Source: Tabrizicola sp.
GTDB lineage: Bacteria > Pseudomonadota > Alphaproteobacteria > Rhodobacterales > Rhodobacteraceae
Reading direction: 5' to 3'
DNA: 64,000 bases
Assembly: GCF_030373185.1 (NCBI RefSeq)
Contig: NZ_JAUCZH010000007.1
Location: 248,001-312,000 of the forward strand
Part shown: piece by piece, positions 13,728 through 50,567 of the stretch
Numbering within the stretch: the stretch's first letter is position 1
Layout: each line of letters begins with the position of its first letter
Notes under the pieces: model-generated
What the model was told of the DNA's origin: nothing
What the model saw: the letters and a program-made list of their open reading frames with translations, nothing else
Databases searched by the model: none
Program-made: the position numbers and the translations under genes

Positions 13728-15014
13728 TCAGGGCTCCAGCGCCCTGGGCTTCGGCCCACCTGTCGCCCAATCCAGAAGCTCGACCGTATGCACCACCGGC
13801 ACGCCGGTGCCAGACCCGATCTGCATCATGCAACCGATATTGCCGGCGGCGATGATCTGCGGGGCCTTTGCCTCAAGCGTCTGAACCTTGCGCGCTTTCA
13901 GTTGCTGGCTGATTTCGGGCTGCAAAAGGTTGTAGGTGCCTGCTGACCCGCAGCACAGGTGGCTGTCCGCGGGCTCCACCACCTCAAACCCCACACGCTT
14001 CAAAAGGTCTTTCGGCGCGGTCTTGATCTGCTGGCCGTGCTGGAGGCTGCAAGCCGCGTGATAGGCGACGCGCAGACCTTTCGCAGCGCCCTGCGGCAGG
14101 CCGAGTGTGGTCAGAACCTCGCTGACATCCTTGGCCAGACCGGCCACCGTGGCGGCATCGCCGGCAAGGGCATCGGTGCGGAACATGTGGCCATAATCCT
14201 TGACCGTCGTCCCGCAGCCACTGGTATTGATGACAATCGCGTCCAGACCCGGCCCGTTCTTCTCGGCCATCCAGGCCCGGATATTGGCCGCGGCACTGGC
14301 GTGGGACAGATCTTCCTTGCCCATGTGGTGCGTCAGCGCCCCGCAGCAACCCGCGCCCCTGGCCACCACCACCTCGCAGCCCAACCGGCGCAGAAGGCGG
14401 ATCGTCGCGTCGTTGATATCCGTGTTCAGCGCCTTCTGAGCGCAGCCGGTCATCAGCGCCACCCGCATCCTGCGTTCGCCGATCGCCGGAAACACCTGCG
14501 CGTCGTCATTGCGGCTGACGGGCGGGATCTGCTTTGGCGCCATCGCCAGCATCGCCTTCAGGCGCTTGTCCGGCACCAGAAAGGCGAAGGGCCTGGCGAT
14601 CTTGGCCCCCAGAAGTGCCAGCCGGAAGCGCCTGGGGTAAGGAATGATCCGCGCCAGCACCGCGCGCAGCACGCGGTCGGTGAAGGGACGCTTGTAGGTC
14701 TTTTCGATATAGGCGCGCGCCTGATCGACCAGATGCATATAATGCACGCCGCTGGGGCAAGTCGTCATACAGGCCAGACAGGACAGGCAGCGGTCGATAT
14801 GCTTGACCGTCTTCTCATCCGCCGGACGGCCCTTTTCAAGCATGTCCTTGATCAGGTAGATCCGCCCCCGCGGGCTGTCCAGCTCATCGCCCAACACCTG
14901 ATAGGTCGGGCAAGTTGCCGTGCAGAAGCCGCAATGCACGCAAGACCGCAGGATCTCGTTTGCGCGGGCGATGCCGGGGTCTTTCAACTGCTCGGGCGAA
15001 AAGGTCGTCTGCAT
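13728..15014 (-). CDS. glcF: Glycolate oxidase iron-sulfur subunit GlcF
   Basis: The 428-residue subunit has two 4Fe-4S ferredoxin motifs, CVHCGFCTATCP near residue 31 and CLSCLACMTTCP near residue 82, and two cysteine-rich CCG-type domains (GCCGALTHH and LCCGSAGTYN). It carries electrons from the flavin subunits to the respiratory chain. It is last in glcD-glcE-glcF; its ATG shares one base with the glcE stop. The glcDEF complex turns glycolate into glyoxylate, feeding the bhc operon 30 kb away. Family, length and order all agree. Confidence 0.95.
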   Translation of the reverse strand: MQTTFSPEQLKDPGIARANEILRSCVHCGFCTATCPTYQVLGDELDSPRGRIYLIKDMLEKGRPADEKTVKHIDRCLSCLACMTTCPSGVHYMHLVDQARAYIEKTYKRPFTDRVLRAVLARIIPYPRRFRLALLGAKIARPFAFLVPDKRLKAMLAMAPKQIPPVSRNDDAQVFPAIGERRMRVALMTGCAQKALNTDINDATIRLLRRLGCEVVVARGAGCCGALTHHMGKEDLSHASAAANIRAWMAEKNGPGLDAIVINTSGCGTTVKDYGHMFRTDALAGDAATVAGLAKDVSEVLTTLGLPQGAAKGLRVAYHAACSLQHGQQIKTAPKDLLKRVGFEVVEPADSHLCCGSAGTYNLLQPEISQQLKARKVQTLEAKAPQIIAAGNIGCMMQIGSGTGVPVVHTVELLDWATGGPKPRALEP

Positions 15015-16096
15015 CAGCCCATCATCCCCCGGTTCAGAATATTGCGCGGATCAAACCGGTCGCGCAGACCGCCAGCAAGCGCCGCCACTTCGGCGGCTTC
15101 CGGAGGAAAGACCGGGGTGCCTTCGCCCCGGATCAACGTCGCATGGCCGCGCCCGGCCACGGCGTCGCGCACCGCCTCGGCCCGGCCTTCAGCTACCAGC
15201 AACCAGACAAGGCCGCCGCCCCAATCCCAGACCGCCTCACCAGCCTCAGCCGCCACCACATCGGCGGCAGCCGTCGGGACAACCGCCAGCCGCCAGACAT
15301 CACCCTTCCTGCCGGCAAAGGCCTCCACATCCCGCACCCGACGCCAAAGGTCGGCACTTTCCGCGCCCTCCACCACTGTCACATCCGCCGCCAACAACGC
15401 GCGAAGCTGCCCGACACGATAGGTAACCGACCCCGCCATCCCCTCAACCCGGATCAGCGATCGCCCGCCTTCCCGCGCGGCACCCGAGATGTCGAAAGGC
15501 GACCCCAGCGCCTTGCGCAGCACCGCCAGCCCAGCGACATCGTCCAGCCCTTCGACCACCAGCGTCGCTTCGGCCTCGGGCAGGGCCTGAACCTTGAAGC
15601 TGACCTCGCTCAGCACGCCCAAGGTTCCCTGACTGCCGGCCATCAGCTTGACCAGATCGTAGCCGGTGACATTTTTCATGACCCGCCCGCCGTTCTTCAC
15701 GACATTGCCGGCCCCATCAACGAACCGCACACCCAGAAGCGCATCCCGGCACGCCCCCACCTGCACCCGGCGCGGGCCGCTGGCGTTGGCCGCCACTACG
15801 CCACCGATGGTTGATGCCCCCTCTCGCCCCAGAAGCCCGCGCAGATCCGGCGGTTCAAACGCCAGCCGCTGCCGGTCCCCCGCCAACACCGCCTCGACCT
15901 CGGCCAAGGGCGTTCCTGCCCGCACCACCAGCGTCAGCGCGCCCGGCTCGTACAATTCGACCCCTGACAGTCCACCGGTCTCCAGCACCTCACCCAGCGC
16001 GCGCCCGATGGTCCGCGTGCCGCCGCCCCGCACCAGCAGAGGACCGGCCGCCCCCAAGATCACGTCCACCAGTTCCGCTTCGGTCTCAGGCCGCAT
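15014..16096 (-). CDS. glcE: Glycolate oxidase FAD-binding subunit GlcE
   Basis: The 360-residue FAD-linked oxidase subunit contains the PCMH-type FAD-binding fold (LLVRGGGTRTIGRAL, LRGLLGREGASTIGGVVAANASGP) and the cap region. It is shorter than GlcD and lacks the full C-terminal FAD-oxidase domain, as expected of GlcE. It lies between glcD (66-base gap holding a palindromic repeat) and glcF (1-base overlap) and works with both in the membrane-associated glycolate dehydrogenase. Confidence 0.93.
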   Translation of the reverse strand: MRPETEAELVDVILGAAGPLLVRGGGTRTIGRALGEVLETGGLSGVELYEPGALTLVVRAGTPLAEVEAVLAGDRQRLAFEPPDLRGLLGREGASTIGGVVAANASGPRRVQVGACRDALLGVRFVDGAGNVVKNGGRVMKNVTGYDLVKLMAGSQGTLGVLSEVSFKVQALPEAEATLVVEGLDDVAGLAVLRKALGSPFDISGAAREGGRSLIRVEGMAGSVTYRVGQLRALLAADVTVVEGAESADLWRRVRDVEAFAGRKGDVWRLAVVPTAAADVVAAEAGEAVWDWGGGLVWLLVAEGRAEAVRDAVAGRGHATLIRGEGTPVFPPEAAEVAALAGGLRDRFDPRNILNRGMMG

Positions 16097-16115
16097 TGTC
16101 GCGCCTTTCCTCTCT

Positions 16116-16157
16116 GCAAAAATATCCTGCGGGGGTCCGGGGGTGCAAAACCCCCGG
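16116..16157 (+). repeat. Dispersed palindromic repeat, copy A (between glcD and glcE)
   Basis: GCAAAAATATCCTGCGGGGG leads into a perfect 7-bp hairpin CCGGGGG / CCCCCGG (16137-16157, loop TGCAAAA). The same head-plus-hairpin plan recurs at 19688, 31355 and 42021. It occupies most of the gap between two co-oriented genes, where the hairpin could affect mRNA stability or relative expression. Confidence 0.7.
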
Positions 16158-16162
16158 CGCTT

Positions 16163-17596
16163 TCAACCCGCGCGCCGCGCCGCGCTTGTCGCCAATGGGA
16201 ACACCTTCGCCGGGTTCAACAGCCATTTCGGATCGAACACATCCTTGACCCGCATCTGCGCCTCCATATCAGCAGCCGCAAACTGCACCGCCATCAGGTC
16301 GCGCTTTTCGATGCCCACGCCATGTTCGCCGGTCAGGCAGCCGCCAACCTCGACACAGAGTTTCAGGATTTCCGCCCCGAAGGCCTCGCATTTCTCCAGA
16401 TCGCCGGGCTTGTTCGCGTTGAACAGGATCAGCGGATGCATGTTGCCGTCGCCCGCATGAAAGACGTTGCCGACATCCAGCCCGAACTCGGCGCTCATCT
16501 CGCCGATCCGCTTCAGGACATGCGGCAGGCTGGAGACCGGGATCGTTCCGTCGAGGCACATGTAATCATTGATCTGGCCCATCGCGCCGAACGCGCTCTT
16601 GCGGCCAAGCCAGATGCGCTTTGCCTGGTCTTCGTCCGCCGCCTCTCGGAACTCCACCGGGTCATGCGCCATGGCGATCTGGCGGATGCGGGTCAGTTGT
16701 TCGGAAATCTCGGCCTCCGACCCCTCGACCTCGATGATCAGAAGCGCTTCGCAATCGGGATAGCCCGCCTTGGCAAATGCCTCGGTCGCGCGGATGCAGG
16801 GGCGGTCCATGAACTCGATCGCCACCGGCAAGAGGCCCGCGCGGATGATGTCGGCGACACAGGCCCCAGCCACTTCGTTGGAGTTGAAACCGACCAACAC
16901 CGGCCGCGCGCCCTCGGGCTTGGGCAGGATCCGCAGCCATGCCTCGGTCACCACGCCCAACTGGCCTTCCGATCCGCAGACCACACCCAGCAGGTCAAGC
17001 CCCGAGGGCTCGGCCCACGGCCCGCCAAGTGTGACCACGGTGCCATCCATCTTGACCAGCGTGACGCCCAGAAGATTGTTCGTCGTCACCCCGTATTTCA
17101 GGCAATGCGCCCCGCCCGAGTTCATTGCGATATTCCCCGCAATCGCGCAGGCCAGCTGGCTGGAGGGGTCGGGGGCGTAAAAGAACCCCTCCGCCTCGAC
17201 CGCGCCGCTGACCGAAAGATTGGTCCGTCCCGATTGCACCCGGATGAAGCGGTTGTCGTAATCCGTCTCCAAAACCGCATTCATCCGCGCCACGCCAAGG
17301 ATCACAGAATCCGCCGTTGGCAGCGCGCCCCCTGCCAGACTGGTGCCAGAGCCCCTAGGCACAACCGGCACGCCTTCTTCCCAGCAGGAGCGCAGCACCG
17401 CACTGACCTCCTCGGTCGTGCGCGGCAGCACGGCAGCAAGTGGCGGGCAGCGATAGGCGGTCAGGGCGTCGCATTCATAGGCGCGCAGTTCGGCCAGATC
17501 GTCGATCACGGCATCATCGGGAAGAACATCGCGCAGCCGGGCGACGATCCGCGCCTTGGCAGACAGGATGGCAGCATCGGGCAGCGGCATTTCCAT
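16163..17596 (-). CDS. glcD: Glycolate oxidase catalytic subunit GlcD
   Basis: The product is 477 residues from the ATG at 17596, which has GGGAGG seven bases upstream. FAD-binding type 4 motifs are present (PVVPRGSGTSLAGGA, CAIAGNIAMNSGGAHCLKYG), and the C-terminal FAD-oxidase domain ends with GEHGVGIEKRDLM and a metal-binding histidine region (VFHAGDGNMHPLI). It oxidises glycolate (and often D-lactate) to the 2-oxo acid. It is first gene of glcDEF; a possible operator lies just upstream. Confidence 0.96.
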   Translation of the reverse strand: MEMPLPDAAILSAKARIVARLRDVLPDDAVIDDLAELRAYECDALTAYRCPPLAAVLPRTTEEVSAVLRSCWEEGVPVVPRGSGTSLAGGALPTADSVILGVARMNAVLETDYDNRFIRVQSGRTNLSVSGAVEAEGFFYAPDPSSQLACAIAGNIAMNSGGAHCLKYGVTTNNLLGVTLVKMDGTVVTLGGPWAEPSGLDLLGVVCGSEGQLGVVTEAWLRILPKPEGARPVLVGFNSNEVAGACVADIIRAGLLPVAIEFMDRPCIRATEAFAKAGYPDCEALLIIEVEGSEAEISEQLTRIRQIAMAHDPVEFREAADEDQAKRIWLGRKSAFGAMGQINDYMCLDGTIPVSSLPHVLKRIGEMSAEFGLDVGNVFHAGDGNMHPLILFNANKPGDLEKCEAFGAEILKLCVEVGGCLTGEHGVGIEKRDLMAVQFAAADMEAQMRVKDVFDPKWLLNPAKVFPLATSAARRAG

Positions 17597-17612
17597 GGTG
17601 ATCCCTCCCGTT

Positions 17613-17635
17613 ATTGGTAAATAAATATAACCAAT
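17613..17635. promoter_or_regulatory. Inverted repeat upstream of glcD, possible operator
   Basis: ATTGGT (17613-17618) and ACCAAT (17630-17635) are perfect inverted half-sites separated by an AT-rich 11-base spacer, in the divergent region between glcD and the DUF599 gene. GntR/FadR-type regulators of glycolate and lactate genes use TTGGT/ACCAA half-sites, but usually with about 3 bases between them, so the spacing is off. Confidence 0.35.
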
Positions 17636-17679
17636 TTTCCCGGCTGACAAGCAAAAACCCCGCCCCTACTGTCGGCGGC

Positions 17680-27341: not shown

Positions 27342-27357
27342 AAGGCCGCCGCATTTC

Positions 27358-39617: not shown

Positions 39618-39759
39618 CTGAAACCTCCGTTTTCCGGCATCAGACCACGAAACCCCTGCCCCTGCGACCCCGCATTGCCCGCATATGACCTTTCGTGAAA
39701 TCTTGAAAATATCTACTGCCATTCTCGCCTAATCTCGCCCGACGCCCAAGGAGAAGCCC

Positions 39760-41175
39760 GTGAACCGCTATCCCCGAGATTTCCGTGGCCATGGCCCCGA
39801 CGCCCCCGATGCCCGCTGGCCGGGTGGCGCGAAGATCGCCATCTCGCTGGTCCTGAACTATGAGGAAGGCGGCGAGAACAGCATCCTTCACGGCGACGCC
39901 CAGTCTGAGGCCTTTCTGTCCGACATCGCTGGCGCCCAACCCTGGCCGGGGATGCGGCACTGGAACATGGAATCGCTATACGACTACGGCGCGCGGGCCG
40001 GGTTCTGGCGGCTCCATCGCCTGTTCACCGGGCGCAACCTGCCCGTCACGATCTACGGCGTCGCCACCGCCCTTGCGCGCAACCCCGAACAGGTGGCCGC
40101 GATGAAATCCGCCGGCTGGGACATCGCCAGCCACGGGCTGAAATGGGTCGATCACCGCGACATGGCCGAAGATCAGGAACGCGCCCAGATAGCTGAGGCG
40201 ATCCGCCTGCACACCGAAGTTGTCGGCACCCCGCCGCGTGGCTGGTATACCGGGCGTTGCTCCTTGAACACGGTCCGGCTGACGGCGGAAGCCGGGGCTT
40301 TCGACTGGATCTCAGATACCTATGACGACGATCTGCCCTATTGGGCCGAGGTGGGGGGCCGTGACCAGCTGGTGATCCCCTACACCCTTGAAGCCAACGA
40401 CATGCGCTTTGCCACCGCGCCGGGCTACATCGAAGGCGAACAGTTCTTCACCTACCTGCGAGACACCTTCGACACCCTCTATGCCGAAGGGGCTGACGGT
40501 CGGGCCAAGATGTTCTCCATCGGCTTGCACTGCCGCCTGATCGGGCGTCCCGGCAAGATCGCCGGCCTGATCCGCTTTCTTGACCACGTCCAGCGCCATG
40601 AAGGCGTCTGGTTCGCCACCCGCAGCGACATCGCCGCGCATTGGGCCGCAACCCACCCGCACGCCCGCATCGAACGCCCCAGCCAGATGACCCGCACCCG
40701 CTTTGTCGAACGCTTCGGCAGCATCTTCGAACACTCCCCCTGGATCGCAGACCGCGCCTTTGACCTTGAACTCGGCCCCGCGCATGACTCGGCGGTGGGC
40801 CTCCACAACGCGCTTGCCCGCATCTTCCGCAGCGCCACGCCCGCCGAACGCCTTGGCGTGCTGAACGCGCACCCCGATCTTGCCGGCAAACTTGCCGCCG
40901 CAAAGCGCCTGACCCCGGAAAGCACCGCCGAACAGGCCAGCGCCGCGCTTGATGCGCTGACCGATGCCGAACGGGCGGAGTTTCAGCGCCTGAACACCGA
41001 CTACGTCGCCAAGCACGGCTTTCCCTTCATTATCGCCGTCCGCGACAACACCAAGGCAAGCATCCTGAATGCCTTCCAGACCCGCCTTGCGAACAATACC
41101 GAACAGGAATTCACGATGGCCTGCGCCCAAGTCGAACGCATCGCCGAACTTCGCCTGAAGGACCAGTTGCCATGA
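39760..41175 (+). CDS. puuE: Fusion: allantoinase (PuuE type) and OHCU decarboxylase
   Basis: 471 residues. Residues 1 to about 300 are a polysaccharide-deacetylase-fold allantoinase (YPRDFRGHGPDAPDARWPGGAKIA, LHCRLIGRPG). Residues about 310-471 are a complete UraD-type OHCU decarboxylase with the catalytic NAHPDLAGK motif (H371) and the KHGFPFIIAV segment. The fusion joins consecutive steps: OHCU to allantoin, then allantoin to allantoate. The stop overlaps the allE start (ATGA). The fusion is known in related bacteria. Both active regions look intact. Confidence 0.94.
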   Translation: MNRYPRDFRGHGPDAPDARWPGGAKIAISLVLNYEEGGENSILHGDAQSEAFLSDIAGAQPWPGMRHWNMESLYDYGARAGFWRLHRLFTGRNLPVTIYGVATALARNPEQVAAMKSAGWDIASHGLKWVDHRDMAEDQERAQIAEAIRLHTEVVGTPPRGWYTGRCSLNTVRLTAEAGAFDWISDTYDDDLPYWAEVGGRDQLVIPYTLEANDMRFATAPGYIEGEQFFTYLRDTFDTLYAEGADGRAKMFSIGLHCRLIGRPGKIAGLIRFLDHVQRHEGVWFATRSDIAAHWAATHPHARIERPSQMTRTRFVERFGSIFEHSPWIADRAFDLELGPAHDSAVGLHNALARIFRSATPAERLGVLNAHPDLAGKLAAAKRLTPESTAEQASAALDALTDAERAEFQRLNTDYVAKHGFPFIIAVRDNTKASILNAFQTRLANNTEQEFTMACAQVERIAELRLKDQLP

Positions 41176-42008
41176 CCGAAAAGCCCGCCGGCTACTACCA
41201 TCCCCCGGGCGGCCTGCCCTCGCAGACCACCCTGATGACCGCCCGCGCCGTTTTTACCCCGGCTTATGCCTTCATCCCCAAGGGTTGCTTTTCCGAAATC
41301 GTCACCAGCAATCTGCCCGGCTGGACGAAAACCCGCCTCTGGCTGATCGCCCGGCCCATGTCAGGCTTCTCCGAAACCTTCAGCCAATATGTGATGGAGG
41401 TGGCCCCCGGCGGCGGCTCCGACACCCCCGACACTGACACCGGCGCCGAACACTGGCTTTTCTTCACCGACGGACTTGCCACGGTGACGATAGACGGCAC
41501 CGGCTATGAGATGGAAGCAGGCTCCTACGCCTACATCCCCCCCGCCAGCCGCTGGACCCTGCTTGCCGAGGGCGGCAGCCCCGCGCGTTTCCACTGGCTC
41601 CGCAAGCTTTACGAACCCGCCCCGGGCCACCCCGCGCCCGCACATTTCGTCATCAACGAACGCGACGTCCCCGTCCGCTTCATGCCGGGCACCGACAACC
41701 GCTGGGGCACCACCCGCTTCGTCGACCCCGATGACATTGCCCATGATGCCCATGTCAACATCGTCACCTTCCAGCCCGGCGGCCGCATCCCGTTTGAAGA
41801 AACCCATGTGATGGAACATGGCCTTTACGTCCTTGAAGGCCGCGCCGCCTACAAGCTCAACCAGGACTGGGTCGAGGTCGAGGCCGGTGATTTCATGTGG
41901 CTGCGCGCCTTCTGCCCGCAGGCCTGCATCGCCGCAGGCCCCGACCCGTTCCGCTACCTCCTTTACAAGGATGTCAACCGCCACGCCAACCTGCGCCTTA
42001 TGCGCTGA
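41172..42008 (+). CDS. allE: (S)-ureidoglycine aminohydrolase
   Basis: 278-residue bicupin of the YlbA/AllE family: the N-terminal half carries MEVAPGGGSDTPDTDTGAEHWLFF, and the C-terminal metal cupin has ETHVMEHGLYVLEGRAAYKLN and DFMWLRAFCPQACI. It releases ammonia from ureidoglycine to give ureidoglycolate. It overlaps the allantoinase fusion and precedes allA by 83 bases holding repeat copy D. No allantoate amidohydrolase (the step before) is encoded in this window. Confidence 0.93.
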   Translation: MTEKPAGYYHPPGGLPSQTTLMTARAVFTPAYAFIPKGCFSEIVTSNLPGWTKTRLWLIARPMSGFSETFSQYVMEVAPGGGSDTPDTDTGAEHWLFFTDGLATVTIDGTGYEMEAGSYAYIPPASRWTLLAEGGSPARFHWLRKLYEPAPGHPAPAHFVINERDVPVRFMPGTDNRWGTTRFVDPDDIAHDAHVNIVTFQPGGRIPFEETHVMEHGLYVLEGRAAYKLNQDWVEVEAGDFMWLRAFCPQACIAAGPDPFRYLLYKDVNRHANLRLMR

Positions 42009-42020
42009 CATTCATCTGTC

Positions 42021-42064
42021 CGGAAATATCCCACGGGGAGCGCGAGGGGTGTGAAACCCCTCGC
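42021..42064 (+). repeat. Dispersed palindromic repeat, copy D
   Basis: GGAAATATCCCACGGGGAGC is followed by the perfect 9-bp hairpin GCGAGGGGT / ACCCCTCGC (42042-42064, loop GTGAA). It lies between two co-oriented genes, allE and allA, as copy A does between glcD and glcE. Confidence 0.7.
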
Positions 42065-42091
42065 TTCCGCCGCCCGCAAGAAAGCCAGCCG

Positions 42092-42565
42092 ATGCAGACC
42101 CTGCACGCCGAACCCCTCACCGCCGCCGGCTTTGCCCCCTTCGGCGATGTTCTGGACGCTACCGGTGATTTCCGGCTTATCAACGACGGGCTCTGCCGCC
42201 GCCACCACGACCGCGCCCGGCTGGATTTCGGTGACGCCCGCGCTGGCATCTCGATCTTCCACGCCGAACCCCGCGCCCTGCCCTACCGCTTTGACCTGAT
42301 CGAGCGTCATCCCGAAGGCTCACAAGCCTTCATCCCGATGACGCAAGCTCCGTTCCTTGTCATCGTTGCGCCTGATCCGCAGGCACAACCGCGCGCATTC
42401 CTTACAAATGGCGCGCAAGGGATAAACCTGCTGCGTGGCACATGGCACGGTGTGCTGACACCCCTTCATTCCCCCGGCATCTTTGCCGTTGTGGACCGGA
42501 TCGGCCCTACGCCGAACCTTGAAGAATACCGTTACACCCAACCGTGGACGGTGCTGGCCCCCTGA
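42092..42565 (+). CDS. allA: Ureidoglycolate lyase
   Basis: 157 residues from the ATG at 42092 (MQTLHAEPLTAAGFAPFGDVL, a typical AllA start). Conserved regions include RHHDRARLDF-like N-terminal strands, FDLIERHPEGSQAFIPM, and the late GINLLRGTWHGVLTPLHSPG. It splits ureidoglycolate into glyoxylate and urea, so purine breakdown here ends in the substrate of the bhc operon 3 kb away. A purine permease follows. Confidence 0.94.
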   Translation: MQTLHAEPLTAAGFAPFGDVLDATGDFRLINDGLCRRHHDRARLDFGDARAGISIFHAEPRALPYRFDLIERHPEGSQAFIPMTQAPFLVIVAPDPQAQPRAFLTNGAQGINLLRGTWHGVLTPLHSPGIFAVVDRIGPTPNLEEYRYTQPWTVLAP

Positions 42566-42646
42566 ACGGGGTATTAACCGGATCGCACCCAAGGGGCAGT
42601 GCGAAGACGGCGAGAACATAAACGCCCCGAGGGAAAGGTAACCACA

Positions 42647-44062
42647 ATGACCAGCGCATCTCTGGGGACACCAGAGCAACTTCGAGACCCAGATTACTTG
42701 CCGCCCCTTGGGCAGGCCGTGCCTTTGGGGATTCAACACGTCCTTGCGATGTTCGTCTCGAACGTCACGCCAGCGATCATCGTCTGTGGCGCAGCGGGGA
42801 TCGGTTTCGGGTCAGATCAGGGCGCGCTCGGTTTTCCCGACATGACCTACATGATCCAGATGTCCATGCTGTTTGCAGGCATCGCCACGCTTTTGCAAAC
42901 CGTCGGCATGGGTCCGGTCGGGGCAAGATTGCCGATCGTGCAAGGCACGTCCTTTGCCTTCGTGCCGATCATGATTCCGGCCGTCGCAGGTCTTGGCACC
43001 GCCGGGCTTGGCGGGCTGATGACCGGTGTGGTCCTTGGCGGTATCTTCCACTTCTTCCTTGGCTTCATCGTCGGCCGCATCCGCTATGCCCTGCCGCCGC
43101 TGGTCACCGGCCTGATCGTGCTGATGATCGGTCTGGCACTGGTCAAGGTCGGTATCCAGTATGCAGCGGGCGGCGTTCCGGCCATGGAGGCAGGCATGCG
43201 CGCCATTGCCGATGCCAAGGCCGCCGGCACCCCGGTTGACTGGTCCACGATAAAGTTCGGCAGCTTCAGCCAGTGGCTTCCGGCGCTGGTCGTGATCCTT
43301 GTCACGCTGGCGATCAAGTTCTTTACCCGCGGTTTCATGGCTGTTGCCGCCGTGCTGATCGGCATCCTTGCCGGTTACGCGGTCGCGCTTGCCATGGGTC
43401 AGGTCAGCTTTATCGCCGTCGAGCGTGCCGGCTACTTCGCCTTGCCAAACCCGTTCATGTGGGGGTTCGAGATCAACTTCGCCATCATCATCGGCATGTG
43501 CTTCATGGCAGTGGTGTCGGCGATCGAGACCGTGGGCGATGTTTCGGGAATCGCCAAGGGCGGCGCAGGCCGCGAGGCGACGGACACTGAAATTCAGGGC
43601 GCGACCTTCGCTGATGGTGCAGGCACAGCCGTCGCGGGCATCTTTGGCGGGCTGCCGAATACCTCGTTCAGCCAGAATGTCGGCCTGATCGCGATGACCG
43701 GAGTGATGAGCCGCCATGTCGTGACCATCGGCGCGCTGTTCCTGATCGTCTGCGGGCTGATCCCCAAGGTGGGTGCGGCCATCAACACCGTCCCGATCAA
43801 CGTGCTGGGCGGCGGCGTGGTGGTGATGTTCGGCATGGTTTGCGCTGCGGGCGTCAACATGCTGTCCGAGGTAAAGTGGAACCGCCGCAACATGGTGATC
43901 TTCGCCACCGCGCTGTCGATCAGCCTTGGCCTGCAACTGGTCCCCGAGGCGCTGCAACACATGGGGCGCACGGCACAGATCCTGCTGACTTCGGGCCTTC
44001 TGCCCGCAGCCGCCATCGCGATCATCCTGAACCTCGCCCTGCCGGAAGAACTGGGCGACTGA
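42647..44062 (+). CDS. NCS2-family purine (urate/xanthine) permease
   Basis: 471 residues from the ATG at 42647 with GAGGGAAAGG upstream. NCS2 signatures include VPLGIQHVLAMFVSNVTPAII, PIVQGTSFAFVPIM, the transport motif region VSAIETVGDVSGIAKG and GLPNTSFSQNVGLIAMTGV, across about fourteen membrane segments. The family is nucleobase:proton symport. Position at the end of the urate genes suggests urate or xanthine as substrate. A hairpin terminator separates it from the convergent gap gene. Confidence 0.92.
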   Translation: MTSASLGTPEQLRDPDYLPPLGQAVPLGIQHVLAMFVSNVTPAIIVCGAAGIGFGSDQGALGFPDMTYMIQMSMLFAGIATLLQTVGMGPVGARLPIVQGTSFAFVPIMIPAVAGLGTAGLGGLMTGVVLGGIFHFFLGFIVGRIRYALPPLVTGLIVLMIGLALVKVGIQYAAGGVPAMEAGMRAIADAKAAGTPVDWSTIKFGSFSQWLPALVVILVTLAIKFFTRGFMAVAAVLIGILAGYAVALAMGQVSFIAVERAGYFALPNPFMWGFEINFAIIIGMCFMAVVSAIETVGDVSGIAKGGAGREATDTEIQGATFADGAGTAVAGIFGGLPNTSFSQNVGLIAMTGVMSRHVVTIGALFLIVCGLIPKVGAAINTVPINVLGGGVVVMFGMVCAAGVNMLSEVKWNRRNMVIFATALSISLGLQLVPEALQHMGRTAQILLTSGLLPAAAIAIILNLALPEELGD

Positions 44063-44101: not shown

Positions 44102-44110
44102 GCTTTCGGC

Positions 44111-45079
44111 TCAGGCCATTGCCCGGGCCATCTCCAGCATCCGGTTGGAAAAGCCCCATTCGTTGTCATACCAGCCAAAGACGCGCAGCAATCCCTGCGG
44201 CGTCATGCGCGTTTCAGGGCAGGCCATGACGATGCTCTCGGGACGCGCCCGCAGGTCTGACGACACCAGCGGCAAGTCTGTCGCCCCGATCACCCCACCC
44301 GCCGCCTGGAACGCCGCGTTGACCGCCGGGATATTCGCCGGGCGGTCGGTGATGACGCTGAGGTCAACGCAGGACACGCTGGCCACCGGCACCCGAACGG
44401 CTGACCCCATGATCCGTCCGGCCACCTCGGGCAGGACCTGATCGAGCAGGCGTTGCGCGCTCGTCGTCGTTGGCACCATCGACAGCGCAGCCGCGCGGCT
44501 GCGGGCGAAATCGGCGGCGGGGGCATCCACGGTCGGCTGACTGCCGGTGTAGCAATGGACAGTGGTCATCGACCCGGTGACTACCCCCCATTCCCGATCC
44601 AGGAGCTTGACCAGCGGCGCCAGCGCATTGGTGGTGCAACTGGCGTTCGACACGATCCGCTGATCCCGCAGCGCCCCCTCATTGGCCCCCAGCACCACCG
44701 TCACCTCGGCCGCAGCCGACGGCCCAGAGATCAGCACCCGCTTTGCCCCGGCGACCAGGCCGCGCTTTGCCATCTCAAGGCTTTCAGCCCGCCCGGTGCA
44801 TTCCATCACGATATCGACGCCTGACAGATCCAGCGTGGACAGATCCGCCGCCCGGTGCAGCGGGATCACCCTGCCGTCGACCACCAAAGCGCCGCCCTCC
44901 AGCGTTGCCTGCCCCGGCCACGGCCCGAAGACCGAGTCGAACTGGAACAGGTAGGCGCACATTTCGGCCGTGGCGATGTCGTTGATCCCGACGATCTCAA
45001 GCCCCGGCACCGCTCCCTTGGCCCAGGCCCGCAGCACGGATCGCCCGATCCGCCCGAACCCGTTGACGAACACCCGCAT
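44111..45079 (-). CDS. gap: Type I glyceraldehyde-3-phosphate dehydrogenase family protein
   Basis: 322 residues from the ATG at 45079 (GGAGGGG upstream). NAD-binding VNGFGRIGRSVLRAW, catalytic cysteine in SNASCTTNALAP, VHCYTGSQ, and the C-terminal WYDNEWGFSNRM. Slightly shorter than the usual 330-335 residues. It could be glycolytic/gluconeogenic GAPDH or an erythrose-4-phosphate dehydrogenase-like relative. It lies 126 bases downstream of bhcD on the same strand; carbon leaving the bhc cycle as oxaloacetate must pass GAPDH during gluconeogenesis, so shared expression is plausible but unproven. Confidence 0.9.
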   Translation of the reverse strand: MRVFVNGFGRIGRSVLRAWAKGAVPGLEIVGINDIATAEMCAYLFQFDSVFGPWPGQATLEGGALVVDGRVIPLHRAADLSTLDLSGVDIVMECTGRAESLEMAKRGLVAGAKRVLISGPSAAAEVTVVLGANEGALRDQRIVSNASCTTNALAPLVKLLDREWGVVTGSMTTVHCYTGSQPTVDAPAADFARSRAAALSMVPTTTSAQRLLDQVLPEVAGRIMGSAVRVPVASVSCVDLSVITDRPANIPAVNAAFQAAGGVIGATDLPLVSSDLRARPESIVMACPETRMTPQGLLRVFGWYDNEWGFSNRMLEMARAMA

Positions 45080-45205
45080 GACCTGCCCCTCCAGCCCTGA
45101 TCGGTGCAGTCTCAGCACGCGCGGGCCGCCGCTTCAACAGGCGTTTGATCAAAATTTGTACCCAGAACAATTGACCGGGTGCGTCACCGGATACGCCTTC
45201 ATAGG

Positions 45206-46165: not shown

Positions 46166-46194
46166 GTGGGTGTTCCTTGCGGTAATGGCGGAGC

Positions 46195-46254
46195 GGGGGT
46201 TTCCCACCCCCGCCAGCCCAGCGGTTTCTCGAACCAGTGGCAAAACCGCTGGGC
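46195..46254. repeat. Two strong hairpins between bhcC and bhcD
   Basis: First, GCGGGGGT / ACCCCCGC with a five-base loop; second, a perfect 13-bp inverted repeat AGCCCAGCGGTTT / AAACCGCTGGGCT around a 15-base loop. Both fall in the 118-base gap between co-transcribed genes and have no T-run, so they look like mRNA-stability or attenuation elements, or a separate repeat family, rather than terminators. Confidence 0.75.
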
Positions 46255-46283
46255 TACGTGGGATACTATCGCACAGAGGAAGC

Positions 46284-47447
46284 CTAGTAGGCCTTGCCGC
46301 GGGCCGAGACCGGCCAGACGACCTCCACCACGCCATTCCTGACACCGACATACCAGTCATGCACGTTGCAGGTCGGGTCACAATGGCCGGGGACAAGCTT
46401 GAGCTTGTCGTTGACCTTCAGAACACCCGCCGGGTCTTCGACAACACCATGTTCATCGCTGCATTTGACGTATTTCACGTCCGTCCGACCAAAGATGACC
46501 GGCAGGCCCGAGTCGACCGACTGCGCCTTCAGCCCAGCATCGACGATGGCCTTGTCGGCCTTTGCGTGGGACATGACCGAGGTCAGGATGAAAAGCGCGT
46601 TTTCCCATTCGCCCTGATCGATCCGGCGGCCATCCTTGTCGAGGATACGGCCATAGTCGGCATCCATGAAGGCATAGCTGCCGCATTGAAGTTCGTTGTA
46701 AACGCCTGAGGTGCTTTCGAAATAATAGCTGCCGGTGCCGCCGCCGCCAACGATGTCGCAGGCGATACCCATCGCGCCCAGCGTATCCACCGCATCCTTC
46801 ACCTGCGCCACGGCAAGGTCGATCTTGGCCTTGCGGTCGTCATAGCTGTCCATGTGCTGCATCGCGCCCTGATAGGCCTGGATACCGGCGAACTTCAGGC
46901 CCGGGGCCGCGTCAATCGCCTTGGCCAGTGCCACCACTTCCGGCGTGGTCTTCACGCCGCAGCGCCCGGCGCCGCAGTCGATTTCCACGAGGCACTCGAT
47001 GGTCGTGCCATGCTTGACAGCCGCCGCAGACAGGTCAGCCACATTGTCGAGCATATCCACACAGCAGATCGCCCGCGCTCCCAGCTTGGGGATCCGCGCC
47101 AGCCGGTCGATCTTGGCCGGGTCGCGGACCTGGTTGGAAACCAGCACATCCTTGATGCCGCCACGGGCAAAGACCTCGGCCTCGCTGACCTTCTGGCAGC
47201 AGACGCCGACCGACCCGCCGAGGCGTTCCTGCAAGAGGGCGACATCGACCGACTTGTGCATCTTGCCATGCACTCGGTGGCGCATGCCGTGGGCCTTGGC
47301 ATAATCGCCCATCTTCTTGATATTGCGTTCCAGCGCGTCGAGGTCGAGAACAAGGCAGGGGGTCTGGATATCCGCCTCGGCCATCCCCGGCAGGGCGGGG
47401 ATGTCATAGCCGACTTCAAGGCCGTCGAATTTCGGATGCGTGTTCAT
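46284..47447 (-). CDS. bhcC: Beta-hydroxyaspartate aldolase BhcC
   Basis: 387 residues, D-threonine aldolase/DSD1 fold: QTPCLVLDLDALERNI, PLP-lysine region RHRVHGKMHKS (K62), GGGGTGSYYFE phosphate-binding loop, and the metal-binding HCDPTCNVHDWYVG near the C-terminus. In the beta-hydroxyaspartate cycle it condenses glyoxylate with glycine to (2R,3S)-beta-hydroxyaspartate. Only 4 bases separate it from bhcB. Alone it would be annotated as a D-threonine aldolase; order and regulator fix the assignment. Confidence 0.94.
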   Translation of the reverse strand: MNTHPKFDGLEVGYDIPALPGMAEADIQTPCLVLDLDALERNIKKMGDYAKAHGMRHRVHGKMHKSVDVALLQERLGGSVGVCCQKVSEAEVFARGGIKDVLVSNQVRDPAKIDRLARIPKLGARAICCVDMLDNVADLSAAAVKHGTTIECLVEIDCGAGRCGVKTTPEVVALAKAIDAAPGLKFAGIQAYQGAMQHMDSYDDRKAKIDLAVAQVKDAVDTLGAMGIACDIVGGGGTGSYYFESTSGVYNELQCGSYAFMDADYGRILDKDGRRIDQGEWENALFILTSVMSHAKADKAIVDAGLKAQSVDSGLPVIFGRTDVKYVKCSDEHGVVEDPAGVLKVNDKLKLVPGHCDPTCNVHDWYVGVRNGVVEVVWPVSARGKAY

Positions 47448-47451
47448 GTGC

Positions 47452-48405
47452 TTACCCTTTCATCCAAGGCAGGTTGTCCAGATCGACGTTGCCGCCGGTG
47501 ATGATGACGCCGACGCGGCGACCGCGGAAGGCGTCCTTGTGTTTCAGGATCGTCGCCAGCGGCACGGCGCAGCTTGGCTCCATCACGATCTTCATCCGTT
47601 TCCAGGTCAGCTTCATCGCCTCGATGATTTCGTCCTCGGTGGCGGTGAAGATGTCGGTGACATGGTTCTGCACGAAATGCCAGGTCAGGTCTTTCAGCGG
47701 CACCTTCAACCCGTCGGCCACCGTTTCCGGCGCGTCGTCGGCAATGATGTGACCGGCCTTGAAGCTGCGATAGGCGTCGTCGGCGTTCTTTGGCTCGGCG
47801 GCGTAGACATCCACCCCCGGCGCGATGTTCGACACGGTCAGGCAGGTGCCGCTGATCATGCCGCCGCCGCCAATGGGGGCGATGATGGCATCCAGCCCTT
47901 CGACCTGATCCAGCAGTTCGCGTGAGCATGTCGCCTGCCCGGCAATCACGCGCGGGTCGTTGTAGGGGTGGACGAATTCCCCCCCGGTCCGCGCCTGCAC
48001 CTCGGCAAAGATCGCTTCACGGCTTGTCGTCGAAGGCTCACATTCGGTGATCGCGCCGCCATAACCGCGCACGGCGTCTTTCTTGGCCTGCGGCGCGGTG
48101 CGCGGCATCACGACGTTGCAGGGGATGCCCCGGCGACCAGCGGCATAGCTGAGGCTGAGCGCGTGATTGCCTGATGAATGGGTGCAGACACCCTTTGCCG
48201 CCATGGCATCGCCAAGGCCGAAGACCGCATTGCAGGCACCGCGCACCTTGAAGGCACCGGCCTTCTGGAAGTTCTCGCATTTGAAGAACAGCTCGGCCCC
48301 AGTCAGGTCATTGAGGTAGCTGGAGGTCAGGACCGGCGTGCGGTGGATATGGGGCGCGATGCGGGCATGGGCGGCCAGCACATCATCAAAAGTCGGGATC
48401 AGCAT
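47452..48405 (-). CDS. bhcB: Beta-hydroxyaspartate dehydratase BhcB
   Basis: 317 residues from the ATG at 48405, supported by AAGGA seven bases upstream; an ATG at 48420 overlapping the bhcA stop is an alternative. Threonine dehydratase/serine racemase fold: KCENFQKAGAFKVRGA (PLP lysine), HSSGNHALSLSYAA, GGGGMISGTCL. It dehydrates beta-hydroxyaspartate to iminosuccinate. Second gene of bhcABCD. Confidence 0.94.
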   Translation of the reverse strand: MLIPTFDDVLAAHARIAPHIHRTPVLTSSYLNDLTGAELFFKCENFQKAGAFKVRGACNAVFGLGDAMAAKGVCTHSSGNHALSLSYAAGRRGIPCNVVMPRTAPQAKKDAVRGYGGAITECEPSTTSREAIFAEVQARTGGEFVHPYNDPRVIAGQATCSRELLDQVEGLDAIIAPIGGGGMISGTCLTVSNIAPGVDVYAAEPKNADDAYRSFKAGHIIADDAPETVADGLKVPLKDLTWHFVQNHVTDIFTATEDEIIEAMKLTWKRMKIVMEPSCAVPLATILKHKDAFRGRRVGVIITGGNVDLDNLPWMKG

Positions 48406-48416
48406 GGGAAAGTCCT

Positions 48417-49607
48417 TCATTCTGCGGCCATTGCCATGGCCGGAACCGTGCCGCGATAGTAGTCCTGCGCCGCTGCCACGCCCGAGCCGAGGGTGACCCC
48501 CCAGCCAAGATCGGCCATGCACATCTCGGCCGTGGCAAGGCCCGACAGCACCATGACTTCGGTCAGCATGCCAAGATGGCCGATGCGGAAGACCTTGCCG
48601 GCCACTTCCCCAAGACCCACACCAAAGGCCACGCCGTATTTGCTGGCGGCCAGTTGCACCAAGGCCGTGCCATCACAGCCCGCAGGAACCTTCACCGCCG
48701 TCACCGTATCGGAATAAAGCTCGGGCGAGGCGGCATAGGGCGTCATCCCCCATGCGGTGATCGCACGGCGCACGCCTTCGGCAAGGCGGTGGTGGCGGGC
48801 GTAGACATTCTCCAGCCCCTCGGATTCAAGCAGGTCGATGGCATGTGCCAGACCCGCAATCAGACCGACCGGCGGGGTATAAGGAAAGCCGCCCTTGGCG
48901 TAGCTTGCCAGCATGTCATTGAAATCAAAGAAGGTGCGCGGCAGGGTGGCCGTTTCCATCGCCGCGATGGCCTTTGGCGACACCCCAAGGATCGCAAGGC
49001 CCGCGGGCAGCATGAAACCCTTCTGGCTGCCCGCAACCGCGATATCGACGCCCCAGCCCGTGAACTCGAACGGCATCGACCCGATGGAGGACACGCCATC
49101 AACAAACAGCATGGCGCCATGCCCCGCCGCGTCCATTGCCCGGCGGATGCCGCCGATATCGGATTTCACGCCGGTCGCAGTTTCGTTATGGGTGGCCAGA
49201 ACCGCCTTGATGCTGCCTGTCTTGTCAGCTTTCAGCGCGGCCTCGATGGTTGCCAAGGGCGCGCCCTGGCCCCATGGCGTCTCGATGATCTGGACGTTCA
49301 ACCCGTGGCGCTGGCAAAGGTCGATCCAGCGATGGCTGAACATCCCGAAGCGGGCGGCAAGCACGGTATCACCGGGCGAAAGGGTGTTTGTGACCGCCGC
49401 CTCCCAGCCGCCTGTGCCGGTGGCCGGGATCAGGATGACTTCACCATCCGCCATTTTCAGCACCCGCCGCACACCTTCAACCGCAGGCTTGAACAGGCGC
49501 GCAAACGCCGGGGACCGGTGGTCAAGCGTCGGCATGTCACAGGCCTTGCGGACGGAGTCGGGAATATTGGTCGGGCCGGGGATGAAGACGGAGTTCTGGA
49601 AGGACAT
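48417..49607 (-). CDS. bhcA: L-aspartate:glyoxylate aminotransferase BhcA
   Basis: 396 residues from the ATG at 49607 with GGGAGAG upstream. Class V aminotransferase of the serine/alanine-glyoxylate type: FIPGPTNIPDSVR start, TGTGGWEAAVTNTL, FVDGVSSIGSMPFEF, and the PLP lysine in VAGSQKGFMLPAG. In the cycle it moves the amino group of aspartate to glyoxylate, regenerating glycine and releasing oxaloacetate. First gene of the operon; the promoter region it shares with bhcR contains two palindromes. Confidence 0.94.
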   Translation of the reverse strand: MSFQNSVFIPGPTNIPDSVRKACDMPTLDHRSPAFARLFKPAVEGVRRVLKMADGEVILIPATGTGGWEAAVTNTLSPGDTVLAARFGMFSHRWIDLCQRHGLNVQIIETPWGQGAPLATIEAALKADKTGSIKAVLATHNETATGVKSDIGGIRRAMDAAGHGAMLFVDGVSSIGSMPFEFTGWGVDIAVAGSQKGFMLPAGLAILGVSPKAIAAMETATLPRTFFDFNDMLASYAKGGFPYTPPVGLIAGLAHAIDLLESEGLENVYARHHRLAEGVRRAITAWGMTPYAASPELYSDTVTAVKVPAGCDGTALVQLAASKYGVAFGVGLGEVAGKVFRIGHLGMLTEVMVLSGLATAEMCMADLGWGVTLGSGVAAAQDYYRGTVPAMAMAAE

Positions 49608-49625
49608 CGGGGCTCTCTCCCTTGA

Positions 49626-49648
49626 GGATGGGTGCAACCTACCCATCC
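49626..49648. promoter_or_regulatory. 8-bp inverted repeat in the bhcA leader
   Basis: GGATGGGT (49626-49633) and ACCCATCC (49641-49648) are perfect inverted arms around a 7-base spacer, about 19 bases before the bhcA start codon. It can be a DNA operator or an mRNA hairpin next to the ribosome-binding site. Confidence 0.5.
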
Positions 49649-49702
49649 ACCGCACCATTCACAATTTTTTCGAAAAGATTTTTCATTTTGTGATTCTTCT
49701 GA

Positions 49703-49720
49703 TGTTATTAATCAATAACA
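49703..49720. promoter_or_regulatory. 18-bp palindrome between bhcA and bhcR, likely BhcR operator
   Basis: TGTTATTAATCAATAACA has perfect 7-base arms around a 4-base centre. It lies 37 bases before the bhcR start and about 95 bases before bhcA, in an AT-rich divergent promoter region. IclR-family proteins bind palindromes of about this length in such positions. Confidence 0.6.
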
Positions 49721-49757
49721 GTGGTTTGCTCTTTTTCAGCAGAAGGAACGGGGAACG

Positions 49758-50567
49758 ATGGCTCAGAAACCACGTGGGCGACCGAAGGCGTTCAACGACA
49801 AGACCGACCAGAACACCGTGCAGGCTTTGGACCGGGCGCTTTTCCTGCTGGAGCATCTGGCCCAAGGCCCGGGTCGCACGCTTTCCGACCTGGCCGAGGA
49901 AACCGGTCAGGCCGTCGCAACTACGTTCCGCGCGCTGCAAACCCTGCAAGGGCATGGCATGGTCGAGGTGGAAGAACCCGGCCAGCTTTGGCACATCGGG
50001 GCCGGGGCCTTCCGGATCGGCACCGCCTTCCTGCGCCGGACCAAAGTGGTGGAACGCGCGCGGCAACCGATGGATGCGCTGATGCGCGAGACAGGGGAAA
50101 CCGCGAACCTTGGGGTCGAGGTGCGGGGCGAGGTGCTGTTTCTGGCGCAGGTCGAAACGCATGAGGCGATCCGCGCCTTCTTTCCGCCCGGCACCAAAGG
50201 CCCGATGCATTCCAGCGGAATCGGCAAGGCCTTGCTGGCGTGGTATCCGGAAGACCGGGCGCGCGAAATCATCGCGCGGCAGGGGTTGCAGAAGTTCACC
50301 ACACTGACGCTGACCTCGGACACCGCGCTATTGCGCGACCTGGCCCGCACACGGGAACGCGGCTTTGCCATCGATGATCAGGAACGCGCCGAGGGCATGC
50401 GCTGCATCGCTGCCCCGATCTTCAATTCCCATGCCGAGCCGGTGGCGGGTCTGTCTGTATCCGGCCCCGCTTTCCGGGTGGGTTTGTCTGATGCCAGCCG
50501 CCTCGGTGCGCTGGTCCGCGCTGCGGCGGACCTTGTGACCGAGGCGACGGGTGGCGTGCGGCCTTAG
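49758..50567 (+). CDS. bhcR: IclR-family regulator BhcR
   Basis: 269 residues: N-terminal helix-turn-helix (TVQALDRALFLLEHLAQ, TLSDLAEETGQAVATTFRALQTL) and C-terminal IclR effector domain (GPMHSSGIGKALLAW, RGFAIDDQERAEGMRCIAAPI). Before the HTH is an AT-hook-like KPRGRPKAF. Divergent from bhcABCD, as in known beta-hydroxyaspartate clusters where the homologue responds to glyoxylate. Its stop codon overlaps that of the convergent DUF533 gene (TTAG on the plus strand). Confidence 0.92.
   Translation: MAQKPRGRPKAFNDKTDQNTVQALDRALFLLEHLAQGPGRTLSDLAEETGQAVATTFRALQTLQGHGMVEVEEPGQLWHIGAGAFRIGTAFLRRTKVVERARQPMDALMRETGETANLGVEVRGEVLFLAQVETHEAIRAFFPPGTKGPMHSSGIGKALLAWYPEDRAREIIARQGLQKFTTLTLTSDTALLRDLARTRERGFAIDDQERAEGMRCIAAPIFNSHAEPVAGLSVSGPAFRVGLSDASRLGALVRAAADLVTEATGGVRP

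What the first reader, a model, noticed from the sequence alone, without database searches (positions are those of the whole stretch)
13728..50567. Three routes to glyoxylate gathered around a complete beta-hydroxyaspartate cycle
Seen: glcDEF (glycolate to glyoxylate), allA (ureidoglycolate to glyoxylate plus urea), bhcABCD with divergent bhcR, and a hydroxypyruvate-isomerase-like gene, all within 37 kb. Known: the cycle assimilates glyoxylate to oxaloacetate without carbon loss. Inference: purine-derived as well as glycolate-derived glyoxylate is assimilated by the same operon, giving urate carbon a growth use rather than only nitrogen release.
Basis: partly seen in the sequence, partly recalled or inferred. 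Interest (0 to 1): 0.7.

Follow-up and report, generated by a model that had tools for sequence, protein, structure and literature searches.

The report
Purine breakdown joined to glyoxylate cycle
Bacteria of the Rhodobacter and Roseobacter group often keep the genes that break purines down to glyoxylate next to the genes of the beta-hydroxyaspartate cycle, which turns glyoxylate into cell material without losing carbon, so purine waste is probably used for growth and not only as a nitrogen source.

Summary
The named genes are there. A complete beta-hydroxyaspartate cycle (BHAC: bhcABCD and bhcR, all over curated cut-offs) lies beside a urate-to-glyoxylate gene set. The purine-BHAC link is real: among 149 genomes of the family, each of another genus, allA lies within 10 kb of bhcC in 29 of the 75 with both; of 56 BHAC loci with enough flank, 30 carry purine genes, in several orders. 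One Leisingera and one Pseudosulfitobacter plasmid carry a contiguous guanine-to-oxaloacetate route. The glycolate part of 'gathered' fails: glcF is within 20 kb of bhcC in 0 of 76 genomes. The isomerase-like gene has no partner: no glyoxylate carboligase in 149 genomes. A conserved 24-bp box marks the bhcA promoter but not the purine promoters, so coupling is probably through glyoxylate sensed by BhcR. Against: outside the family 0 of 8 sampled BhcC loci are linked, allA is as common without bhcC, and malate synthase G is present. Growth use is inferred. I read it as BHAC replacing the glycerate pathway of allantoin systems: a new variant of a known kind.

The parts
49662..49685 (-). 24-bp box TGAAAAATCTTTTCGAAAAAATTG upstream of bhcA; candidate BhcR operator or promoter element
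   Evidence: best site at least 25.7 bits in each of 65 bhcR-bhcA intergenic regions (the matrix was trained on them); window site 45.0, best window site that does not overlap it 6.2; 33.3-45.3 bits before bhcA in all 10 plasmid loci that hold bhcA, among them Rhizobium, Sinorhizobium, Methylobacterium and Aminobacter (one of the 10, L225, looks like a near copy of training locus L072)
48417..49658 (-). bhcA, L-aspartate--glyoxylate aminotransferase (ORF; the start may be internal)
   Evidence: NF045640 709 bits, cut-off 650
47452..48522 (-). bhcB, beta-hydroxyaspartate dehydratase (ORF; domain starts about residue 42)
   Evidence: NF045641 605 bits, cut-off 550
46284..47447 (-). bhcC, 3-hydroxy-D-aspartate aldolase
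   Evidence: NF045642 760 bits, cut-off 690; Pfam PF01168 + PF14031
45206..46396 (-). bhcD, iminosuccinate reductase (ORF; domain starts about residue 78)
   Evidence: NF045643 524 bits, cut-off 500
49758..50567 (+). bhcR, IclR-family regulator, divergent from bhcA
   Evidence: NF045644 390 bits, cut-off 350
44111..45118 (-). GAPDH-like gene downstream of bhcD; role unknown, possibly gluconeogenic
   Evidence: PF00044/PF02800; GAPDH-I 330 bits, below cut-off 367; beside bhc in 20 of 55 other loci
42599..44062 (+). NCS2 nucleobase permease (xanthine/urate type)
   Evidence: TIGR00801 313 bits over cut-off 292; pbuX 381 below cut-off 414
41897..42565 (+). allA, ureidoglycolate lyase (ORF; domain starts at residue 66, about 42092)
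   Evidence: PF04115 178 bits; NF002952 244 bits (cut-off 260)
41172..42008 (+). (S)-ureidoglycine aminohydrolase, 'bifunctional allantoicase' type
   Evidence: NF040771 452 bits, cut-off 350
39760..41175 (+). puuE-uraD fusion: allantoinase and OHCU decarboxylase
   Evidence: TIGR03212 516 bits (cut-off 425) and TIGR03164 200 bits (cut-off 96)
39264..39722 (-). hiuH, hydroxyisourate hydrolase (domain from residue 37)
   Evidence: TIGR02962 130 bits (cut-off 87); PF00576
35339..36574 (-). puuD-type membrane urate oxidase
   Evidence: PF06181 448 bits
36680..37600 (+). LysR regulator divergent from puuD, candidate regulator of the purine genes
   Evidence: beside bhc in 20 of 55 other loci
13728..17650 (-). 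glcFED (glcF 13728-15014, glcE 15014-16096, glcD 16163-17650): glycolate oxidase; nearness to bhc not conserved, not judged part of the unit
27241..28134 (+). hydroxypyruvate / 2-oxo-tetronate isomerase-like gene; not judged part of the unit
   Evidence: below cut-offs; Gcl not found

Best explanation
This is a purine-to-oxaloacetate catabolic unit. An NCS2 permease brings in xanthine or urate. Xanthine dehydrogenase (encoded elsewhere in the genome) feeds urate to PuuD, HiuH, UraD, PuuE, ureidoglycine aminohydrolase and AllA, which end in glyoxylate plus urea and ammonia. BhcABCD then condenses two glyoxylate into oxaloacetate without losing CO2. Gene content and conserved neighbourhood are shown here. 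The enzyme activities follow from the named families. Inferred: glyoxylate, not a shared operator, couples the two halves, because BhcR of Paracoccus denitrificans responds to glyoxylate (published) and the bhcA box was not found at the purine promoters of the window. The cycle thus does for purine glyoxylate in this family what the Gcl glycerate pathway does in E. coli and Pseudomonas. Glycolate oxidase can feed the same cycle but is not part of the conserved unit in this family.
For: All five bhc proteins over cut-off; purine enzymes; xdhB and urease alpha elsewhere in the same genome. allA within 10 kb of bhcC in 29 of 75 genomes of different genera, against bhcC-glcF 0 of 76, malate synthase G-allA 0 of 70 (2 of 70 within 20 kb) and malate synthase G-bhcC 1 of 73. 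30 of 56 determinable BHAC loci carry purine genes: core genes downstream of bhcD 25, upstream of bhcR 2, only the ureidoglycine aminohydrolase 3. The three window neighbours that lie within reach and are not purine or bhc genes are rarely kept: duf533 2, oxoprolinase 0, duf2125 2 of 55, against allA 26. Leisingera caerulea NZ_CP081096 39290-64075 (modABC, aminohydrolase, bhcR, bhcABCD, permease, allA, puuE, hiuH, puuD, xdhABC, guaD) and Pseudosulfitobacter pseudonitzschiae NZ_CP086950 68183-89150 (same route without modABC, other order); Rhizobium sp. CCGE531 puuE-uraD-allA beside bhcR-bhcABCD-gap. No Gcl in 149 genomes. Published precedent: the allantoin-induced gcl cluster of P. aeruginosa is needed for growth on allantoin as sole carbon source (PMC12694930, abstract and passages).
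Against: No expression, growth or isotope data. allA is about as common without bhcC (62 of 70) as with it (75 of 79; p = 0.23), so purine breakdown does not need the cycle. 26 of 56 determinable BHAC loci have no purine gene beside them. Of 8 BhcC loci from other families of the class sample (6 with bhcA, B or D beside, 2 solitary) none has allA, puuE or the aminohydrolase gene within about 10 kb; one has a 42% identical permease. All 30 linked loci fall on one side of the bhc tree and the other side has 0 linked of 11 judged, so one origin with many losses is possible. Malate synthase G is encoded here and in 139 of 149 genomes. The bhcA box is not at the window's purine promoters, so a common regulon is not shown.
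Confidence: 0.75

Rival explanations
1. Purines are used only for nitrogen; the adjacent cycle serves as a glyoxylate detoxification or overflow sink, or malate synthase G takes the glyoxylate.
For: allA common in genomes without bhcC (62 of 70); malate synthase G in 139 of 149 including this genome; urease present.
Against: Nitrogen use alone would not call for the conserved neighbourhood with a carbon-assimilating cycle; malate synthase G lies within 10 kb of allA in 0 of 70; on two plasmids read the whole guanine-to-oxaloacetate route is carried together.
Confidence: 0.2
2. The neighbourhood is a relic of shared ancestry or of joint transfer on plasmids, with no functional link.
For: All 30 linked loci lie on one side of the bhc tree; 0 of 8 loci from other families are linked; many bhc clusters are plasmid-borne (118 PLSDB records with BhcC).
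Against: Other neighbours of the same locus are kept in 0-2 of 55 (three genes tested within reach) while allA is kept in 26; gene order is reshuffled while nearness is kept (against 72-73); linked also in Rhizobium sp. CCGE531; the linked state needs at least 14 changes on the tree.
Confidence: 0.12
3. The cycle here serves glycolate (published role); nearness to purine genes is incidental and nearness to glcDEF is the meaningful one.
For: Published function in Paracoccus denitrificans (PMC11323563, abstract and passages); glc genes directly beside bhc in L081 and L111 of 80 named loci and on two rhizobial plasmids; glcF present in 76 of 79 bhcC genomes.
Against: glcF within 20 kb of bhcC in 0 of 76 genomes of this family; in the window 27.5 kb with unrelated genes such as polA lie between; no glc gene found on the Leisingera plasmid that carries bhc.
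Confidence: 0.1

Closest known systems
Beta-hydroxyaspartate cycle with BhcR, Paracoccus denitrificans (PMC11323563: abstract and passages seen; the 2019 Nature paper is not held, recalled only)
   Same: Same four enzymes and divergent regulator; all over curated cut-offs.
   Different: Described there for glycolate; in the passages seen purines and allantoin appear as a possible glyoxylate source in the introduction and in the account of E. coli AllR. Here the conserved neighbours are purine genes.
Allantoin-inducible gcl-hyi-glxR-glxK cluster, Pseudomonas aeruginosa PAO1 (PMC12694930: abstract, outline, passages)
   Same: Assimilates purine-derived glyoxylate; shown there to be needed for growth on allantoin as sole carbon source.
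   Different: Glycerate pathway with Gcl, which releases CO2; no Gcl found in 149 genomes of this family; BHAC takes its place.
E. coli allantoin regulon under AllR (passages in PMC11323563)
   Same: IclR-family regulator answering to glyoxylate; BhcR is a sister group of the IclR/AllR clade according to that paper.
   Different: A LysR gene accompanies the purine genes here, and the bhcA box is not found at the window's purine promoters.
SAR11 purine catabolism giving carbon as glyoxylate (PMC11698098: passages)
   Same: Same enzymes to glyoxylate and urea; purine carbon use proposed from genomes.
   Different: The term hydroxyaspartate does not occur in its main text; BHAC is not named as the sink in the passages seen.

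Membership tests
beta-hydroxyaspartate cycle | BhcA, BhcB, BhcC and BhcD in one cluster, each over its equivalog cut-off | tested here: met
beta-hydroxyaspartate cycle | divergent IclR-type BhcR | tested here: met
   bhcR-bhcA divergent regions with a common box
beta-hydroxyaspartate cycle | the four enzyme activities and glyoxylate-dependent growth | not testable with these tools
   no experiment available
purine ureide pathway | urate oxidase, HIU hydrolase, OHCU decarboxylase, allantoinase, allantoate/ureidoglycine hydrolysis, ureidoglycolate lyase | tested here: met
   a stand-alone allantoicase or allantoate amidohydrolase was not searched for, the bifunctional aminohydrolase is assumed to cover that step from its family name
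allantoin-glycerate (gcl) system | glyoxylate carboligase | tested here: not met
   0 of 149 genomes including this one (E up to 1e-150); E. coli control positive
single AllR/BhcR-type regulon over purine and glyoxylate genes | shared operator at the bhc and purine promoters | tested here: not met
   best window site that does not overlap the bhcA box 6.2 against 45.0 bits; among relatives 4 of 29 puuE-hiuH regions exceed the shuffled 95% level, one strongly (L039, 21.2), and their median (-9.3) is above that of shuffles (-15.6); lysR-puuD 0 of 15

The most novel reading that the evidence does not exclude
In a large part of the Rhodobacteraceae the main selected role of the beta-hydroxyaspartate cycle is to recover carbon from purines, not glycolate. 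It can travel as part of plasmid-borne guanine-to-oxaloacetate units, and its genomic partner is exchanged by lineage: purine genes in Rhodobacteraceae (and one Rhizobium and one Methylobacterium plasmid seen here), glycolate oxidase in other rhizobia.
Probability: 0.42. Interest if true: 0.7.

Novelty: new variant of a known kind. Interest (0 to 1): 0.56.

Why it matters
The cycle was described as a route for algal glycolate. If in about half of the BHAC loci of this family (30 of 56 judged) the gene neighbourhood points to purines, then purine and ureide exudates are a carbon source for these bacteria, with carbon-conserving assimilation, and models of marine purine cross-feeding may lack this sink. 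It gives a simple knock-out test in culturable strains such as Leisingera, where the whole route sits on one plasmid.

Tried and rejected
Shared BhcR operator over purine genes: the box was searched in 29 puuE-hiuH regions (of 32; 3 under 40 bases dropped), 15 lysR-puuD regions and the whole window. Only L039 has a strong extra site. Rejected for the window.

Operon fusion in Marivita-like loci, where the aminohydrolase gene runs towards bhcA (L054, L066, L067, L088, L091): the bhcA box lies between the two genes in these five, so bhcA keeps its own promoter element.

Presence/absence association of allA with bhcC: none (75 of 79 against 62 of 70, p = 0.23). Linkage in other families of the class: 0 of 8.

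Glycolate oxidase as part of the unit: rejected for this family. Hydroxypyruvate isomerase as part of the unit: rejected, no Gcl.

For that and for the 0 of 8 outside the family I lowered the best explanation from 0.78 to 0.75 and the novel case from 0.45 to 0.42.

Minus-strand readings of 27316-28140, 34060-34899 and 34896-35276 gave no family. The plus-strand ORFs are the isomerase-like gene, a sulfotransferase and a GFA protein.

A LysR operator shared by the puuD and puuE promoters was noticed by eye (GAAAGACC-like words) and not tested.

Literature: whether BHAC and purine genes have been linked in print was looked for only (40 of 53 papers listed; 25 of 603 listed) of an open-access library. 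PMC12599240, which holds the four words, was not opened. The 2019 Nature paper on the cycle and a 2014 gene-context paper on the purine-ureide pathway are not held and could contain it.
Full report
What is there. Family scans place glcF, glcE and glcD at 13728-17650 (-), bhcD, C, B and A at 45206-49658 (-) and bhcR at 49758-50567 (+), the last five all over their NCBIfam equivalog cut-offs. Between glc and bhc, close to bhc, lies a urate-to-glyoxylate set: PuuD-type urate oxidase 35339-36574, a LysR regulator, HIU hydrolase 39264-39722, a PuuE-UraD fusion 39760-41175, the ureidoglycine aminohydrolase of the 'bifunctional allantoicase' family 41172-42008, AllA (ORF 41897-42565), an NCS2 permease 42599-44062 and a GAPDH-like gene 44111-45118. 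The hydroxypyruvate-isomerase-like gene is at 27241-28134 (+) and stays below the cut-offs of its families. Xanthine dehydrogenase B, urease alpha and malate synthase G lie elsewhere in the same genome. So two, not three, routes to glyoxylate were found.

Does it hold in relatives? The window's family was sampled with 149 genomes, each with its own genus code: BhcC at E up to 1e-100 in 79, over its cut-off in 60, AllA in 137, PuuE in 140, GlcF in 139. allA lies within 10 kb of bhcC in 29 of 75 genomes that have both, and within 20 kb in 31; with BhcC over its cut-off 25 of 57; random placement would give about 0.5% per genome. Four of the 29 have a solitary BhcC-like gene, not a BHAC. The binomial tail of 9e-42 treats genera as independent, which they are not. 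glcF is within 20 kb of bhcC in 0 of 76 and within 50 kb in 3 of 76, the window among them. Malate synthase G, the other glyoxylate sink, is within 10 kb of allA in 0 of 70 (within 20 kb in 2) and of bhcC in 1 of 73. Matches on different contigs count as not linked, so fragmented genomes lower all these counts.

Gene order. I fetched all 81 BhcC loci of these 79 genomes (ten loci from the class sample were kept apart). 66 loci (64 genomes) have bhcA, B or D beside bhcC; 10 of them end too close to a contig end to judge. Of the other 56, 27 have allA or puuE and 3 more only the aminohydrolase gene; 26 have none. The core purine genes are downstream of bhcD in 25 and upstream of bhcR in 2 (these two 14-18 kb away); the aminohydrolase gene is inside the purine block in 6 and on the bhcR side in 16. 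In 80 named loci with the best matches to the window's BhcC (capped list), the same reshuffling is seen: purine genes upstream of bhcR in L057 and L060, split on both sides in L072, inverted in L091. As a control for plain synteny, three window neighbours that are neither purine nor bhc genes and lie within reach were sought in the 55 determinable loci other than the window: duf533 2, oxoprolinase 0, duf2125 2, against allA 26, puuE 24, hiuH 24, puuD 21, aminohydrolase 21, GAPDH-like 20. These three may evolve faster and so be missed more easily.

Outside the family. A class sample of 289 genomes has BhcC (E up to 1e-180) in 12. Eight of the 12 belong to other families; six have bhcA, B or D beside bhcC and two are solitary. 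None of the eight has allA, puuE or the aminohydrolase gene within about 10 kb; one has a 42% identical permease. So the link is mostly a trait of the window's family, as far as sampled.

History. On a tree of concatenated Bhc proteins (66 loci, quick method, midpoint root) all 30 linked loci fall among 54 on one side; the other 12 have 0 linked of 11 judged; the linked state needs at least 14 changes. One early joining with many losses is therefore possible, as are repeated joinings. BhcC occurs in 118 plasmid records. All 17 Leisingera records among them also carry PuuE, 4.3-5.2 kb away; one search measured only 30 records that stand in both listings, so it gives no rate for the 118. On Leisingera caerulea NZ_CP081096 the stretch 39290-64075 runs modABC, aminohydrolase, bhcR, bhcABCD, permease, allA, puuE, hiuH, LysR, puuD, a small ORF, LysR, xdhABC, permease, guaD. 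No glc gene was found on the record (three pieces covering it). On Pseudosulfitobacter pseudonitzschiae NZ_CP086950 the same route lies at 68183-89150 in another order and without modABC; no glc gene was found on the stretches read, about 9 kb unseen. Rhizobium sp. CCGE531 (from Phaseolus) has hiuH, puuE-uraD and allA beside bhcR-bhcABCD-gap, and Methylobacterium radiotolerans has 8-oxoguanine deaminase, an NCS2 permease and a molybdopterin enzyme next to bhcD. Against this, Sinorhizobium meliloti Rm41 and Rhizobium sophoriradicis have glcDEF-bhcR-bhcABCD, Aminobacter has FAD oxidoreductase and RidA genes near bhc, and for Ruegeria pomeroyi and Paracoccus sp. Arc7-R13 neither the annotation nor the search shows purine-pathway or glycolate oxidase genes within 10 kb.

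Regulation. A matrix trained on 65 bhcR-bhcA intergenic regions (64 loci and the window) gives a 24-bp box, consensus TGAAAAATCTTTTCAAAAAAATTG; the best site in every one of the 65 scores at least 25.7 bits, the window's scores 45.0 at 49662-49685 (-), and no window site that does not overlap it exceeds 6.2. In ten plasmid loci with bhcA, fetched later, the box stands before bhcA in all ten (33.3-45.3 bits); L225 looks like a near copy of training locus L072, so nine are new. Of 29 puuE-hiuH regions four exceed the shuffled 95% level and only L039 strongly (21.2); their median is above that of shuffles (-9.3 against -15.6); of 15 lysR-puuD regions none exceeds it. The mBio 2024 paper on P. denitrificans (PMC11323563; abstract and passages seen) reports that BhcR activates bhc, that glyoxylate changes its DNA binding, and a potential palindromic site upstream of the bhcA -35 region. 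I infer that purine genes answer to their own LysR protein, and that the glyoxylate they make turns on bhc.

Why BHAC. The same paper names two known routes for net assimilation of glyoxylate, the glycerate pathway and BHAC. Glyoxylate carboligase, the entry of the glycerate pathway, was found in none of the 149 genomes (E up to 1e-150, E. coli control positive). Routes through glycine and serine were not tested. In P. aeruginosa the gcl cluster is induced by allantoin and needed for growth on allantoin as sole carbon source (PMC12694930, abstract and passages). The window's unit is best read as the same job done by another cycle. Results against: allA is not commoner with bhcC than without (75 of 79, 62 of 70; p = 0.23), malate synthase G is nearly universal (139 of 149), 26 of 56 BHAC loci have no purine neighbour, and the link was not seen in 8 loci of other families. 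Most genomes without bhcC keep the purine genes, so purine use as such does not require the cycle.

Novelty. In what I saw of the literature searched (long listings were capped) only PMC11323563 speaks of purines together with the cycle, as a possible glyoxylate source in its introduction. PMC12599240 was not opened, and the 2019 Nature paper is not held, so a prior mention cannot be excluded.

Noticed in passing
L177 (G025), L178 (G146), L179:10813-12785 (G097), L181 (G072), L139 (G170): A BhcC-like gene without bhcA, B or D follows the ureidoglycine aminohydrolase gene directly (aligned ends 3-61 bp apart) in 4 of 15 solitary BhcC-like loci of the family sample, and likewise in L139; in L179 the two ORFs overlap by 4 bp. 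The five proteins all keep 108 of 169 columns invariant in BHAC members. Function unknown; possibly a shorter glyoxylate + glycine route.
   Followed up: partly
window 44111-45118 (-); L139:11215-12240: A GAPDH-like gene recurs beside bhc (20 of 55 other loci) and after a solitary BhcC-like gene in L139, where a malic enzyme follows. Gluconeogenic role guessed, not tested.
   Followed up: partly
NZ_CP081096.1 39290-64075 (L229, L230): Contiguous plasmid unit from molybdate uptake and guanine deaminase to oxaloacetate, on a plasmid that also carries type VI secretion and chemotaxis genes.
   Followed up: yes
L081, L111 (named loci); L235, L236 (rhizobial plasmids): glcDEF (only glcF detected in L111) directly beside bhc: a second, glycolate-linked form of the same cassette.
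   Followed up: partly
L239 (Aminobacter), L240 (Phaeobacter gallaeciensis pP75_g): bhc genes near FAD oxidoreductase and RidA genes, suggesting another glyoxylate source such as amine or glycine oxidation; in L240 only bhcB and bhcC are annotated.
   Followed up: no
window 51330-55313 (-); L215: A 1327-aa hydantoinase A/B (oxoprolinase-like) ORF near bhcR; a relative precedes a solitary BhcC-like gene in L215.
   Followed up: no
window 39264-39760 and 36574-36680: GAAAGACC-like words in both the hiuH-puuE and lysR-puuD intergenic regions, possibly a LysR site; seen by eye only.
   Followed up: no
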